Assembly (NCBI GenBank): GCA_026018925.1
Contig: JAKSZU010000004.1
Coordinates: 12,850,964 to 12,914,963 of the forward strand
Origin: Tupaia tana
Lineage: Eukaryota; Chordata; Mammalia; Scandentia; Tupaiidae
Direction: 5' to 3'
Length of the DNA stretch: 64,000 nt
Part shown: in pieces, positions 12,101 through 56,581 of the stretch
Position numbering within the stretch: the stretch's first letter is position 1
Layout: each line of letters opens with the position of its first letter
Program-made: the position numbers and the translations under genes
Notes under the pieces: generated by a model
What the model saw: the letters and a program-made list of their open reading frames with translations, nothing else
What the model was told of the DNA's origin: nothing
Database searches by the model: none

Positions 12101-13430
12101 AGGTGACTCGGTTACTGGGCCTGGCTGGCACAGGGCTGGAGTGCCCAGCTTGTGGGCTGGGCAGCGCAGAGCAGGAGGGGAGTCGATGGCTGGCGCAACT
12201 TCTCTGGAGGAGGCCACGGCGGGGCCCTAGGCCTCAGGGTGGGGTGTGGGACACACGCGCGTACACACAGCCACACACGGAAAACACCCGCGACAGACAC
12301 ACAGCACAAACTCCAGACACGCACACACACACACACCAAAACACACCCAGAGAGCGCGACCACAGCAGACTGCGCAGAGACCACGTTCACACTCACGCAC
12401 GGCCCACACGCGGCGTTGGCGCCGCACAAAGTTGCCAGGGAGGCTGGGAGCGCCCCAGACCCCTCGCGCCATTGGGGCGGGCGCCACTGGGACCCCAGCC
12501 GGACCCAGCGCTCCGCCCCGCGGCCCCGCCAGCGCCCCGCCGTGCTTGCGAAACCGCCGCCGCGCGGCTGGTCGGAGTCGGGGCCGCGGGGCCTCCTCCC
12601 TCTCCCGCCCTGCCCGACCCAGGCAGCCGCGGGGGCGCCGCCAACAACAACTTGTTCCGGCCCGGCCCGGGCCGGGCCGGCCCGGCGCACCACACTCGCG
12701 CGCACACACACGCCGCCCCCTCGGGCGCCCCGGCCGGCACACACGCAGGCGCGCGCCACACTCGCAACATTCCTGGACACGCGGCCGGCGTGCACACTCG
12801 CTCGCATCCGCTCCCGCACGCACATTCCCGGCGCACTCGGCGCTCACTCGGACCCTCGCAGCCCCGGCGGCGCACACGACGCGGGACACACGTTGCGGAC
12901 CGTTCCCACGGCCTCGCACGCGCACGCGGGGCTCACAAGCACGCACGCCACACACGCGGCCCCTGATGCACACGGGCGGGCTCCACGGAGCACTCCGGGC
13001 CGCTCTCAGACACACAGCGCCCCGCCAGGGCACGCGCCGCGCCGCGGGAGCACAACTCCGGCTGCACGCCCGAACTCGGATGCACACGACCCACTTGGCC
13101 ACAGACACCACGCACTGGCAGGCACAGGACGCTCAGCGCACGCCGAAAGCCTCGACACACGACACACAGCCCCACACACGGGCGGACACAACACACGGCA
13201 CCTCCTGCACACGGACCTCGGCACGCGGCGCTCGCCATCGCAGTCTGCGCACACGGTCGTATACGCGGACACTCCGACCGGCCCGCGCTCACACTTTCGG
13301 CCGGGCTACGCCGCCGGGGCTGGCGGGGCTGGCGGGCAGGCTGGTCCCCGCGCTTACCTGCCGGAGTCTCGGTCTCGGGCGCGCAGAGCTGGAAGGTGAG
13401 TGCCAGCAGGAGCGCCGGGGCGCGGGCCAT
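57..13430 (-). CDS. PTPRU: PTPRU, 5' end of gene (coding exons 1-2 with intron 1)
   Basis: Receptor-type protein tyrosine phosphatase U, a type I plasma-membrane phosphatase of the R2B (MAM domain) subfamily active in cell adhesion and beta-catenin signalling. Two coding exons are in the window: exon 1 (signal peptide, 13358-13430) and exon 2 (start of the MAM domain, 57-188), separated by a 13.2-kb intron. Both splice phases agree (phase 1), and the joined 68 residues follow the human N-terminus closely. The rest of the gene (remaining MAM, Ig, FN3, transmembrane and phosphatase exons) lies beyond the left edge. The gene is divergent from MECR, with about 5.8 kb between the two start codons. 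Confidence 0.95.
497..650 (-). mobile_element. MIR fragment
   Basis: Contains CCCATTTTACAG, AAACTGAGGC and GTCACACAGCTAG in the order of a reverse-complement MIR core. An ancient mammalian SINE in PTPRU intron 1. Confidence 0.75.
731..873 (+). mobile_element. SINE type S
   Basis: tRNA-like head (ACAGGTAGCATGGTCATTAAGG), B box GTTCAAGTCCC, then the CTTGCTTTCTCACTTTCCC body and an A-rich tail. Diverged copy. Confidence 0.75.
882..1130 (+). mobile_element. SINE type L
   Basis: Starts GGGGCCAGCACGTGG; its long body includes GAGGAGGGTGGGGGAGATGG and ends TGCCCTATGGTAAAAAAC plus an A-rich tail. It follows the type S copy at 731 in the same orientation. Confidence 0.75.
1290..2100. repeat. GTGTGGACAG minisatellite in PTPRU intron 1
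   Basis: About 29 imperfect units of roughly 18-35 bp, each beginning GTGTGGACAG and continuing as variants of YGGGCAGGGCGGGGC. A higher-order pattern is visible: a unit ending GGTGGTCRCAGAGC recurs near 1340, 1618 and 1799. Strand asymmetry is strong (G-rich plus strand). Long open frames on both strands here (up to about 316 codons) are products of the repeat, not genes. Confidence 0.9.
2110..10760. other. PTPRU intron 1, unique GC-rich sequence
   Basis: No exon, RNA gene or intact SINE recognised. Short features: MIR-like tracts near 2320-2370, 7670-7745 and possibly 10230-10330; a (GTGAGC)n tract at 4604-4638; CA-rich tracts at 3570-3600 and 9240-9400; a TC-rich tract at 7445-7503. Open frames up to about 260 codons occur on both strands but show no recognisable protein or exon pattern. 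Confidence 0.6.
7445..7503. repeat. TC-rich simple repeat
   Basis: Imperfect CTCTCGCTC/TCTC tract in PTPRU intron 1. It may be the pyrimidine-rich body of a decayed SINE, but no clear tRNA head precedes it. Confidence 0.6.
10764..11020 (+). mobile_element. SINE type L, young 5'-truncated copy
   Basis: Bounded by exact 13-bp target-site duplications AAGAAAGGCCGCC (10751-10763 and 11021-11033). It begins inside the head at GTAATC, carries the variant B box GGTTCGCGTCTC and ends in a run of about 20 A. Almost identical in its body to the copy at 56837-57106. Confidence 0.93.
11135..11410. repeat. Minisatellite with GGCCACAGCCTGCCCC core
   Basis: About seven imperfect copies of a roughly 38-43-bp C-rich unit built around GGCCACAGCCTGCCCC and CAGCCCCTCGGCACCC. 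It starts shortly after a young SINE in PTPRU intron 1. The C-rich plus strand gives proline-rich accidental frames. Confidence 0.85.
11640..11760 (-). mobile_element. MIR-like fragment
   Basis: GGGGCTTGCCCAAGGTCCC followed by GGGGCAGAGCAGAACTGAACCTGG is the order of a reverse-complement MIR. Diverged. Confidence 0.45.
13358..13430 (-). CDS. PTPRU: PTPRU coding exon 1 (signal peptide)
   Basis: Encodes 24 residues plus one base, starting [16 protein letters not shown]: an N-terminal Arg, then a hydrophobic core, a typical signal peptide. It continues APETETPA, as in human PTPRU. The start has a strong context (A at -3, G at +4 on the minus strand). The exon ends CAG followed by the donor GTAAGC (13352-13357 on the plus strand). 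Phase-1 junction; the split codon becomes Ala with exon 2. Confidence 0.95.
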
Positions 13431-13598: not shown

Positions 13599-13626
13599 GG
13601 CCCGGCAGCGCGGTCCGCGGTCTCGC

Positions 13627-13641
13627 GGCGCCCCCTGCTGG
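13627..13641 (-). promoter_or_regulatory. CTCF core motif upstream of PTPRU
   Basis: On the minus strand this reads CCAGCAGGGGGCGCC, matching CCASYAGRKGGCRSY at every position. It lies about 200 bp upstream of the PTPRU start codon. A strong candidate CTCF site at the boundary between PTPRU and the region leading to MECR. Confidence 0.6.
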
Positions 13642-13839
13642 CAGCGCGCGCCCGACCGTCCCGCCGCTCTCGGGCCCGGCACGCCCCTCCCCCACCCCGG
13701 GTCCCAGCCCGCTGTCGAGGAGGGCAGCCGCGGGGCCAGGGCGCCCCTGGGCTCTCACGCTGCCGGCACGGAGGTCCGCAGGCGACCACGCCCTCACTCG
13801 GGCACAACGCCTTCGAGGACAGCGACACCCGGCTTTTGG

Positions 13840-17428: not shown

Positions 17429-17615
17429 GGGGCCAGCAGGTGGCGTGGTAGTTAAGGGCCCTGGATTCCCAGATGGCTGACCATGGTTCAAGTCCCAGAC
17501 CTGGATACTTTCTTTCTCACCTTCCCTTTTTCTCTCTCTCTCTGTCTCTGTCTGGTCACATTAAAATAATAATAGTAACAATAACAAATGGAAATAAATA
17601 AATGAATAAATCTTT
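17429..17615 (+). mobile_element. SINE type S, near full length
   Basis: GGGGCCAGCAGGTGGCGTGG head, B box GGTTCAAGTCCC, pyrimidine body, GGTCACATTAAAATAATAAT tail. The head contains CCAGCAGGTGGCGTG, a near match to the CTCF core. Confidence 0.9.
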
Positions 17616-19250: not shown

Positions 19251-47560
<28,310 letters not shown>

Positions 47561-50429: not shown

Positions 50430-50582
50430 GTTTTATTATTATTAAGTTTGCTATTGGGCCTATGTGCTTACCAGACAGATAGATCGAGAGAGAAAGAGGG
50501 AAAGCGAGACAGCTAGCCACTAGATACAGGACTCAAACCGCAGTCGGCCACAGCACTGCAACCATGCCACCTGCTGGCCCCC
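50430..50582 (-). mobile_element. SINE, type S-like
   Basis: ATTATTATTAAGTTTGCTATTG tail, CTTACCAGACAGATAG, ACAGGACTCAAACCGCAGTC and GCCACCTGCTGGCCCC head. The TTGCTATTGGGCCTATGTGC start recalls the type L end, so it may be a second mosaic like that at 39955. Confidence 0.75.
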
Positions 50583-53129: not shown

Positions 53130-54260
53130 GTGGGCCGCCCCGCTCCTTCCACGCCCGCGCTGCCCGGTGCGACGCCCACGCTCACGCCGCGGCTGCAGCT
53201 TCGCCGCTGGTCGCGCCACTGCTGTGGGCCACAGGGAGAACACGAGGCCCCCGGCGCTCACCGGCGTGCGCAGCAGTCCAAGAGCCGAGCGCCTCCTCCC
53301 GACGCTCCCAGGGCGGCTGTCCAGCAGGAGCCGCCGCCGCCTTCTCCGCCCCGAGATGAACGCGGCGACCGACGGCCGAACGCAGAGGACAAAGGCCGGG
53401 CCCGGCCCGTGCGCGGAGGGCCGCACTTCCGGGGACGGGCGGGCGCTTCCGGGGGCGGGGCCGCGCGACCTGTCCGTCACGCGGCCCCGCCCCAGCCCCG
53501 GCCGGGCGGGAAGCGAGCGCGCTCTCCGTTACCTCCGCCCGGAGGGAGGGCGGGGAGGCGGGTGCGCGCGCTGCGTGCCCGCGTACGTCGCGGGGTTCGG
53601 CTGCGTGCGTCGCGCCGCCTGTCCGTTGCCGCCGCCGCGCTCTCGCTCCGCCGGCCGCCGCCTGAGGGGGCCGGGGCTGGGCCCCTACGCGCCGTCGCCG
53701 GGATGCCGCGGGTTTACATCGGCCGCCTGAGCTACCAGGCCCGGGAGCGCGATGTGGAGCGCTTCTTCAAGGGCTACGGGAAGATCCTGGAGGTGGATCT
53801 GAAGAACGGGTGAGCAGGGCGGAGGAGGGCCCGGCGGGTGGGGACGGGGCCTGGCGGGGCGGGGAGGCCGCAGGCCCGGGAGGGACGCCCGGCCCGCGCG
53901 CGGCAGCGCCGGCCTGCCCGGTTCCGCCATGGTCGCGGCGCGTCGGGGGCACAGTAGGCCCGCTGCCCAGTGCGCCTGCGCGGGAGTGCGGCGCTCGTGG
54001 GAGCGGGAGGGTCCGAGCGCGGCGGGCGGGGACGGGCGAGGCGGGGAGAGGCCGGGGGAGGCGGGGACGGGCGGGGCGGCGCGAGGCGGGCGCGAGGCGG
54101 GCGCGGGCTCTCGCGGGCCCGGAGCTGCAGCCCGGCTGTGCCCGGGTGGGAACCGGCCTCCCCGCGTCGAGGGCTGCCGGGGGAAGCAGGACGCCCTGCC
54201 GCTTTTGCCTCTCCCCGTCTAGTAGACAAGACGGTCGCACGCGTCTGTCCCGGGCACCGG
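53130..54260 (+). promoter_or_regulatory. SRSF4: SRSF4 CpG-island promoter region
   Basis: CpG-dense interval over the 5' UTR, first exon and start of intron 1. Two ETS-type CTTCCGG sites at 53426-53432 and 53446-53452 with a GC box GGGGGCGGGGCC (53451-53462) lie about 250-280 bp before the start codon, and a CGTCACG half-CRE near 53475. ETS plus Sp1 without a TATA box fits a constitutive splicing-factor gene. The transcription start is probably 53500-53640. Confidence 0.75.
53703..53809 (+). CDS. SRSF4: SRSF4 coding exon 1 (start of RRM1)
   Basis: Serine/arginine-rich splicing factor 4 (SRp75), a nuclear regulator of splice-site choice. The 107-base exon encodes 35 residues and two bases of the next: MPRVYIGRLSYQARERDVER then FFKGYGKILEVDLKNG. 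VYIGRL is the RNP2 motif of the first RRM. All residues match the human protein as I know it. SRSF6 begins almost the same (MPRVYIGRLSYNVREKD), but QARERDVERFF is the SRSF4 form, and the neighbour MECR supports it. G at -3 gives a good start context. Donor GTGAGC; exon 2 (YGFVEF) is not in the window. Confidence 0.96.
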
Positions 54261-56099: not shown

Positions 56100-56237
56100 T
56101 GAGCCAGCAGATGGCGCTGTGGCTAAGGCAGTAGATTCCCACATAGCCAATTGCTGTTCCCATCCCGGACCTGGTAACTTACTCACTTTTCCTCTCTCTC
56201 TATCTCTGGTCAAACTTTTTAAAAAATAATAATGATA
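56100..56237 (+). mobile_element. SINE type S carrying a perfect CTCF core
   Basis: TGAGCCAGCAGATGGCGCTG head; CCAGCAGATGGCGCT at 56104-56118 fits CCASYAGRKGGCRSY at all 15 positions. Decayed B box (GCTGTTCCCATCCC), so it is probably transcriptionally dead as a SINE. Confidence 0.82.
56104..56118 (+). promoter_or_regulatory. Candidate CTCF site inside a SINE
   Basis: Full match to the CTCF core consensus within the tRNA-like head of the element at 56100. Binding is inferred only. Confidence 0.45.
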
Positions 56238-56581
56238 GGGGCCAACAGGTGGTATAGTGGTTAAGGGCTCTGGACTCCCATATGGCTGACCATGGTCCAA
56301 GTCCCAGACCTGACAGCTTGCTTTCTTGCTTTCTCTCTCTCTCTCTCTCTCTCTGTCCCTCTCTGGTCAAATTAAAATAAATACAGTTAAATAAAATAAT
56401 TCTTTTTTTAAAAAAAGAATTTCTTTATTTTTATTTATTTTATTTATTTATTTTTAATTTGACCAGAGAGGGAAAGAGAGAAATGGAAAGTGAGAAAGCA
56501 AGCCACCAGGTCTAGGACTCGAACCACAGTCAGCCATGTGGGAGTCCAGCGCCCTTAACCACCATGCCACCTGCTGGCCCC
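56238..56581. mobile_element. Inverted pair of type S SINEs, tail to tail
   Basis: Plus copy 56238-56410 (GGGGCCAACAGGTGGTATAG to TAAATAAAATAATTC), then minus copy 56412-56581 (T-rich tail, ATTTGACCAGAGAGGG to ATGCCACCTGCTGGCCCC). They are separated by only a few A/T bases and can pair over about 150 bases in SRSF4 pre-mRNA. Confidence 0.88.

What the first reader, a model, noticed from the sequence alone, without database searches (positions are those of the whole stretch)
56104..56118. SINE heads carry a CTCF-like core; one copy is a perfect match
The shared head contains CCAGCAGGTGGCGTG (type S) or CCAGCAGTTGGCGTA (type L), one or two changes from the CTCF core CCASYAGRKGGCRSY. The copy in SRSF4 intron 1 reads CCAGCAGATGGCGCT, a 15/15 match. 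Others come close, for example 17433, 35550, 41294 and 44628 on the plus strand, and 20735 and 40540 on the minus. Rodent B2 SINEs are known to have spread CTCF sites in the same way; here a different SINE may be doing so independently.
Basis: partly seen in the sequence, partly recalled or inferred. Interest (0 to 1): 0.75.

Follow-up and report, generated by a model that had tools for sequence, protein, structure and literature searches.

The report
tRNA-like SINE heads resembling CTCF sites
A very common mobile element in this mammal begins with a sequence close to the binding site of CTCF, a protein that folds chromosomes; older copies could have seeded many possible CTCF sites, but no binding has been shown.

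Summary
The 15/15 core at 56104-56118 is real and lies in the head of a decayed S-type SINE in SRSF4 intron 1. It is neither unique nor the window's best: 13627-13641 (-), outside any SINE by PTPRU, scores higher. Type L has 3 mismatches, its youngest form 4, not one or two.

The wider claim holds as sequence. In 20 stretches taken without regard to content from one contig, the SINE covers 21.9% of bases, and 23 of 23 CTCF-matrix matches at p<1e-5 are SINE heads (shuffles: mean 1.5, maximum 4). S (15.6 bits) and old L consensuses (15-16) score above recalled mouse B2 (13.6). Of 100 perfect cores examined (5,648 genome-wide), 21 are SINE heads.

Limits: only 23 of 152 sampled heads pass p<1e-5. 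Successive L waves lost the motif (16.2, 15.0, 10.2, 4.0 bits). One perfect-head type occurs about as often as independent mutation predicts (207 v 179), and the core is not consistently conserved.

Best reading: old waves passively spread moderate CTCF-like proto-sites, and a few copies matured by mutation into strong ones. Occupancy is untested. Candidate new member of a known kind.

The parts
56104..56118 (+). perfect 15/15 CTCF-type core CCAGCAGATGGCGCT in an S-type SINE head
   Evidence: 19-mer 56101-56119 scores 19.62 bits
56101..56231 (+). decayed S-type SINE copy that holds the core; followed by another S copy (56238-56416)
   Evidence: nhmmer 64.7 bits, model 2-147; alignment to S consensus
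56112..56122 (+). box A position of this copy, TGGCGCTGTGG: the conserved A of box A is T here, so the change that completes the CTCF core damages box A
   Evidence: direct reading against consensus box A TRGYNNARNGG (recalled)
53703..53809 (+). SRSF4 exon 1 coding part; intron 1 starts at 53810 (GT)
   Evidence: named from recalled SRSF4 N-terminus
17433..17447 (+). S head, 2 mismatches, 15.56 bits (equals S consensus)
35550..35564 (+). old-type head, 2 mismatches, 15.99 bits
41296..41310 (+). head, 2 mismatches, 14.44 bits (reader wrote 41294)
44628..44642 (+). head, 2 mismatches, 12.72 bits
20731..20745 (-). L head of ATG type, 2 mismatches, 14.95 bits (reader wrote 20735)
40538..40552 (-). 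L head of ATG type, 2 mismatches, 15.63 bits (reader wrote 40540)
50563..50577 (-).
56563..56577 (-).
   Evidence: 19-mer 56562-56580
33462..33476 (+). L head of TTG type, 3 mismatches, 10.22 bits
56840..57088 (+). young L copy of TTA type (CCAGCAGTTAGCGTA); motif effectively lost
   Evidence: class consensus 4.03 bits
13627..13641 (-). strongest CTCF-type match in the window, 15/15 and 22.75 bits, not in a SINE, about 200 bp upstream of a PTPRU-like start codon (ATG at 13430, minus strand)
   Evidence: no SINE hit

Best explanation
The S and L elements are SINEs with a tRNA-like pol III promoter in a shared head. The head starts GGGCCAGCAGGTGGCGTRGTGG; the last 7 bases of the 15-base CTCF-type core are also the first 7 of box A. 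Old waves (S, L-GTG, L-ATG) scattered some 10^5 moderate CTCF-like proto-sites by copying (shown as sequence; the number is extrapolated from one contig). Later L master copies changed at two poorly tolerated core positions and stopped carrying the motif (shown in the sample). After insertion, ordinary point mutation (above all T to C at core position 14, with or without a pyrimidine at 15) or a small deletion fusing GGTGGC to GCTGGACTCCC turned a few copies into strong sites; the SRSF4 intron copy is one (shown as sequence). CTCF probably occupies the strong copies in open, unmethylated chromatin and only some of the moderate ones (inferred; not tested).
For: Genome sample of 20 stretches: 218 copies, 21.9% of 193,787 bases; 23 of 23 matches >=14.57 bits and 32 of 36 >=13.14 bits are heads; shuffle means 1.5 and 3.1. 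Consensus scores: S 15.56, L-ATG 15.40, L-TTG 10.22, L-TTA 4.03, recalled B2 13.64. L ladder by own-consensus non-CpG divergence: GTG 0.151 (n 20), ATG 0.121 (33), TTG 0.059 (17), TTA 0.026 (46), Kruskal-Wallis p 8e-18; GTG v ATG alone p 0.13. Box A intact in all four L class consensuses. Perfect cores: 5,648 genome-wide; 100 listed places examined, 21 in the SINE-head register. Counts RTA 17,785, RTT 1,140, RCA 2,798, RCT 207: OR 1.15, CI 0.99-1.35. Deletion-fused heads: 62 exact.
Against: No binding data. Only 23 of 152 sampled heads reach p<1e-5. No consistent constraint on the core: with edge effects corrected, core v rest of head is S 13.9 v 12.3%, GTG 22.8 v 19.0%, TTG 10.1 v 8.3%, TTA 5.8 v 3.5% (core as fast or faster); only ATG is slower (8.8 v 14.2%, p 0.002), and not against the nearest 21 columns (p 0.1). 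The moderate heads carry T at PWM position 17, which costs 2.6 bits. If all extrapolated sites were bound they would outnumber usual CTCF site totals (recalled), so most are probably not bound.
Confidence: 0.6

Rival explanations
1. Pure look-alike: the head resembles a CTCF core only because of the tRNA-like box A plus chance, and neither moderate nor strong copies are used by CTCF.
For: The core's last 7 bases are box A. The counted type of perfect head occurs at close to the independent-mutation rate. Core not consistently constrained. 166 of 196 heads are below p<1e-5. Young L copies lost the match.
Against: S and old L consensuses score above recalled B2, and B2 is bound in mouse (PMC3368268, passages). 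Box A does not explain the other half, CCAGCAG. SINE-borne and other perfect cores have about the same median PWM score (21.0 v 21.3), so the core gives CTCF no sequence reason to skip them.
Confidence: 0.27
2. Selection against CTCF capture: host CTCF binding (or its ADNP/ChAHP competitor) penalised the elements, and the L lineage escaped by mutating core positions 8 and 10 while keeping box A.
For: Stepwise loss GTG-ATG-TTG-TTA tracks age. The two net core changes cost 12.1 bits and keep box A. In mouse, loss of ADNP raises expression and CTCF binding at less diverged SINE B2 (PMC11293393, passages).
Against: Only 2 of 33 net consensus differences between GTG and TTA fall in the 15-column core, close to the share expected by length; 21% of random double substitutions (15% transition-weighted) lower the score as much. 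S copies show no age trend (rho 0.04, p 0.75; that set included 8 loci chosen by an S pattern).
Confidence: 0.08
3. A dedicated CTCF-carrying subfamily with a perfect head (GGCRCTGTGG) was amplified and SRSF4 holds one of its members.
For: Heads with the same CT at core 14-15 recur: 207 exact copies.
Against: 207 is near the 179 expected from the single changes, and small beside 17,785 RTA heads and 8,778 exact S heads.
Confidence: 0.05

Closest known systems
Rodent B2/B3 SINE and CTCF (PMC3368268, passages seen)
   Same: tRNA-derived SINE with a CTCF M1 core; lineage-specific spread; comparable PWM score
   Different: B2 motif is in the 3' half on the opposite strand (recalled consensus) and mostly has M1+M2 (paper); here it is in the head over box A. 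B2 binding was shown by ChIP; here it is not tested
Dog SINEC_Cf (tRNA-Lys SINE) and CTCF (PMC3368268, PMC9902604, passages seen)
   Same: tRNA-derived SINE, M1 only, enriched at dog TAD boundaries in print
   Different: Taken to be a different SINE (no sequence comparison beyond the PWM); the recalled SINEC_Cf consensus scores only 4.5 bits at its head, so bound dog copies presumably differ from that recalled consensus or the recall is faulty
Opossum MAR1_Mdo (MIR family) and CTCF (PMC3368268, passages seen)
   Same: M1 only, SINE-borne
   Different: MIR family by the paper; not compared here by sequence
T+ SINEs such as Can, C, Eri-1, Tal, Ves, Dip (PMC8466645, passages seen)
   Same: Type S has a TC-rich tract, AATAAA repeats and a T-run before the A tail (7 copies)
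   Different: Type L ends in poly(A) without these signals (10 copies), yet shares the head; no published family was compared here by sequence

Membership tests
tRNA-derived SINE | internal pol III box A and box B | tested here: met
   Box A TGGCGTAGTGG/TGGCATAATGG/TGGCGTAATGG/TAGCGTAATGG in the four L class consensuses; box B GGTTCGAGTC in the ATG and TTG consensuses; GTG and TTA differ by one base from the searched box B pattern. Motif definitions recalled
tRNA-derived SINE | detectable homology to a tRNA | tested here: inconclusive
   ARAGORN 0 in window; Rfam 0 at gathering in window and no tRNA hit for three single copies at E up to 10; consensus not testable in the Rfam tool
T+ SINE (type S) | AATAAA signals, pol III terminator, A tail, after a pyrimidine tract | tested here: met
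   S alignment of 7 copies read against the definition in PMC8466645 (passages)
CTCF-dispersing SINE | CTCF core in the consensus that was copied | tested here: met
   S 15.56, L-GTG 16.24, L-ATG 14.95-15.40 bits; not met for L-TTG (10.22) and L-TTA (4.03)
CTCF-dispersing SINE | copies supply more CTCF-type matches than chance | tested here: met
   23 of 23 matches at p<1e-5 in heads; shuffles mean 1.5, maximum 4 of 60; but only 23 of 152 heads pass
CTCF-dispersing SINE | CTCF bound in vivo at the copies | not testable with these tools
   no ChIP data; species unnamed
B2-type CTCF SINE | M1+M2 two-part motif carried by the element | tested here: inconclusive
   Core begins 3-4 bases from the element's 5' end, so a module on the 5' side would lie in flanking DNA; that M2 lies on that side is recalled; no M2 matrix was scanned
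B2-type CTCF SINE | sequence homology with B2 | not tested
   only PWM scores compared, against a recalled B2 consensus

The most novel reading that the evidence does not exclude
This mammal's genome holds one of the largest SINE-borne reservoirs of CTCF-type sites, several hundred thousand moderate heads and several thousand strong ones, and that load drove selection on the SINE itself, so that the youngest wave discarded the CTCF core while keeping its pol III promoter.
Probability: 0.1. Interest if true: 0.85.

Novelty: new member of a known kind. Interest (0 to 1): 0.5.

Why it matters
SINE-borne CTCF sites were shown in rodents, dog and opossum (PMC3368268, passages). A further SINE whose heads make up all 23 moderate CTCF-type matches in a genome sample would, if bound, be another replicate at large scale and a natural test of how a genome copes with about 10^5 weak CTCF sites. 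The age-ordered loss of the motif across L classes makes the question of whether CTCF capture hurts a SINE directly testable.

Tried and rejected
Tried without result: ARAGORN and Rfam found no tRNA. The anchored variable-gap counts never ran, so the share of perfect cores in SINE heads rests on 100 examined places. Species not identified: the literature searches listed no paper that I recognised as describing this element, and no search by sequence of published SINEs was possible.

Rejected: (a) that box A forbids a strong CTCF site: with box A intact the best possible score is 23.8 bits, and T to C at core 14 adds 3.7. (b) A first look suggested a conserved core in L-ATG copies (4.7% v 13.9%); it shrank when alignment edges were corrected (8.8% v 14.2%, and no significant difference from the nearest 21 columns). 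(c) An amplified perfect-head subfamily. (d) The reversed-pattern control for the 5,648 perfect cores (230): the reversed pattern always contains CpG, so it is not a fair control.

Dropped before counts: head counts use copies whose model start is at most 6 (196 of 72+218 copies); one search uses 128 L copies with a complete core, of which 116 fall in the four classes; one search uses 250 copies, 237 with a head. L001-L008, chosen by an S pattern, were left out (summary), 38, 64, 74, 76, 88 and 101 but were. Of 100 perfect-core places 24 overlapped a SINE hit; L061, L090 and L128 are not in the head register and are not counted. The 100 are the first listed (C66 and C111), not a random draw. 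The 20 stretches are spaced 1.4 Mb apart over the first 27 Mb of one 90-Mb contig. The exact-pattern counts were not checked place by place for SINE context.

Full report
Where it is. The window is part of a 2.95-Gb genome in 1,198 contigs. From recalled protein sequences, a PTPRU-like start codon lies at 13430 on the minus strand, and the SRSF4 exon 1 coding part at 53703-53809 (+). The reported site is in SRSF4 intron 1.

The observation. A second 15/15 core lies at 13627-13641 on the minus strand with 22.75 bits, about 200 bp upstream of the PTPRU-like start codon and not in a SINE. Type L has three mismatches, not one or two, and its youngest form four.

Chance inside the window. Matches exceed dinucleotide shuffles at low and moderate scores (>=10 bits: 41 v 24.9, 0 of 100 shuffles reach it; >=14 bits: 9 v 4.2, 4 of 100) but not at >=16 bits (2 v 1.5; 43 of 100). 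The window alone would not carry the claim.

The element. Profile searches find 80 stretches of S or L in the window at E up to 1, and 72 at E up to 0.01, covering 20.5%. S has a TC-rich tract, AATAAA repeats and a T-run, a T+ type tail by the definition in PMC8466645 (passages); L has a long middle part and a poly(A) tail. Both share the head. It has box A, and in two of four L class consensuses a full box B. No tRNA was recognised by ARAGORN or Rfam, so the parent tRNA is not settled.

Genome sample. I fetched 20 stretches of 10 kb from contig C111, spaced 1.4 Mb apart over its first 27 Mb, without regard to content. The SINE makes up 218 pieces and 21.9% of the 193,787 readable bases. Of CTCF-matrix matches at >=14.57 bits (p<1e-5 at the window's GC), 23 of 23 lie in SINE heads; at >=13.14 bits, 32 of 36. 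In the window it is 7 of 8 and 8 of 10. Head zones are 2.8% of the sampled bases; shuffles of the same DNA give 1.5 and 3.1 on average and at most 4 and 7 (60 shuffles). Extrapolated, the genome has about 350,000 matches at >=14.57 bits (bootstrap over stretches 208,000-533,000). This rests on part of one contig. The heads dominate because they are so many, not because most are good.

How good the consensus heads are. S 15.56, L with ATGGC 15.40, L with TTGGC 10.22, L with TTAGC 4.03; recalled mouse B2 13.64. B2 is bound by CTCF at thousands of places in mouse and rat, and dog SINEC_Cf and opossum MAR1 carry M1-only sites (PMC3368268, passages). The present core starts 3-4 bases from the element's end, so any 5' module would have to come from the insertion site (that M2 lies on that side is recalled, and no M2 matrix was scanned).

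The motif is lost in the youngest L class. Of 128 L copies with a complete core, 116 sort by core positions 8-10 into GTG, ATG, TTG and TTA. Their own-consensus, non-CpG divergence outside the core falls in that order: 0.151 (n 20), 0.121 (33), 0.059 (17), 0.026 (46); Kruskal-Wallis p 8e-18; the first step alone is not significant (p 0.13). Class consensus scores fall with it: 16.24, 14.95, 10.22, 4.03; of copies with a complete 19-mer, 0 of 4 GTG, 8 of 20 ATG, 0 of 15 TTG and 0 of 41 TTA reach 14.57 bits. Box A stays intact (all). This could be escape from CTCF, but drift suffices: 2 of 33 net consensus differences fall in the 15-base core, and 21% of random double substitutions (15% with transitions favoured) cost as much. 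S heads show no age trend.

Perfect cores. The genome has 5,648 perfect 15-mers. I fetched 100 listed places (96 on C111, 4 on C66). 24 overlap the SINE and 21 are in the head register: L033, 034, 037, 042, 051, 052, 055, 059, 062, 069, 070, 072, 076, 080, 083, 084, 086, 108, 111, 112, 116 (L069 and L108 read by eye because the profile match starts after a deletion). That suggests about 1,190 in all (CI 762-1,710). Two routes are visible: point changes at core positions 14-15, and small deletions that fuse GGTGGC to GCTGGACTCCC (62 exact cases genome-wide). SINE-borne and other perfect cores have median scores of 21.0 and 21.3.

No sign of a dedicated subfamily, little sign of selection. Genome counts of CCAGCAGRTGGCR-xx-GTGG are TA 17,785, TT 1,140, CA 2,798 and CT 207, with reversed controls 0. 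Independence predicts 179 CT; odds ratio 1.15, CI 0.99-1.35, p 0.07. Copies of mixed age would give such a small excess by themselves (inference). The 2,798 CA heads miss the 15/15 pattern at one base but score 19.5 bits with the consensus flank, so strong heads are probably more numerous than perfect ones; these places were not checked one by one. Core columns are not consistently more conserved than the rest of the head once alignment edges are corrected; in GTG and TTA copies they are less conserved.

How it most likely works. Shown as sequence: a moderate CTCF core in the consensus of old S and L classes; its dominance among moderate matches in the sample; its loss in the young L class; its occasional completion by mutation. 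Inferred: CTCF occupies the strong copies, perhaps the SRSF4 intron copy too, where chromatin is open and the CpG is not methylated. The moderate majority is mostly silent or weakly bound, and ADNP/ChAHP, whose loss raises B2 expression and CTCF binding in mouse cells (PMC11293393, passages), may restrain it here. Not tested: any binding.

Novelty. SINE-borne CTCF expansion is known and is reported to contribute to loop anchors and TAD boundaries (PMC9902604, passages). The searches made here (listings, plus passages of the papers named and of PMC12026660) showed no report that I recognised as this element or as CTCF in it. It is filed as a candidate new member of a known kind.

Noticed in passing
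13626-13644 (-): Strongest CTCF-type match of the window (22.75 bits), outside any SINE, about 200 bp upstream of a PTPRU-like start codon; its orientation is opposite to the 56104 site (divergent pair).
   Followed up: partly
S copies, e.g. 56403-56581 (-), versus L copies, e.g. 33459-33703 (+): One SINE head is shared by a T+ type element (S: TC tract, AATAAA, T-run) and a T- type element (L: poly(A) tail).
   Followed up: partly
L009-L028: The S/L SINE covers 21.9% of the sampled bases, a very high load for one SINE group; the youngest L class (TTA) diverges only about 2.6% at non-CpG sites (window plus sample), so activity was probably recent.
   Followed up: partly
1307-2085: GC-rich minisatellite-like array with GGACAGYGGG-like units of several overlapping periods.
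   Followed up: no
L029/L031 and L030/L032: Perfect CTCF cores on contig C66 occur in two pairs that are near-identical over the 60 bases shown, which points to a local duplication.
   Followed up: no
genome-wide: 62 exact cases of SINE heads with the deletion that fuses GGTGGC to GCTGGACTCCC, making a strong CTCF-type core in one step and removing box A.
   Followed up: partly
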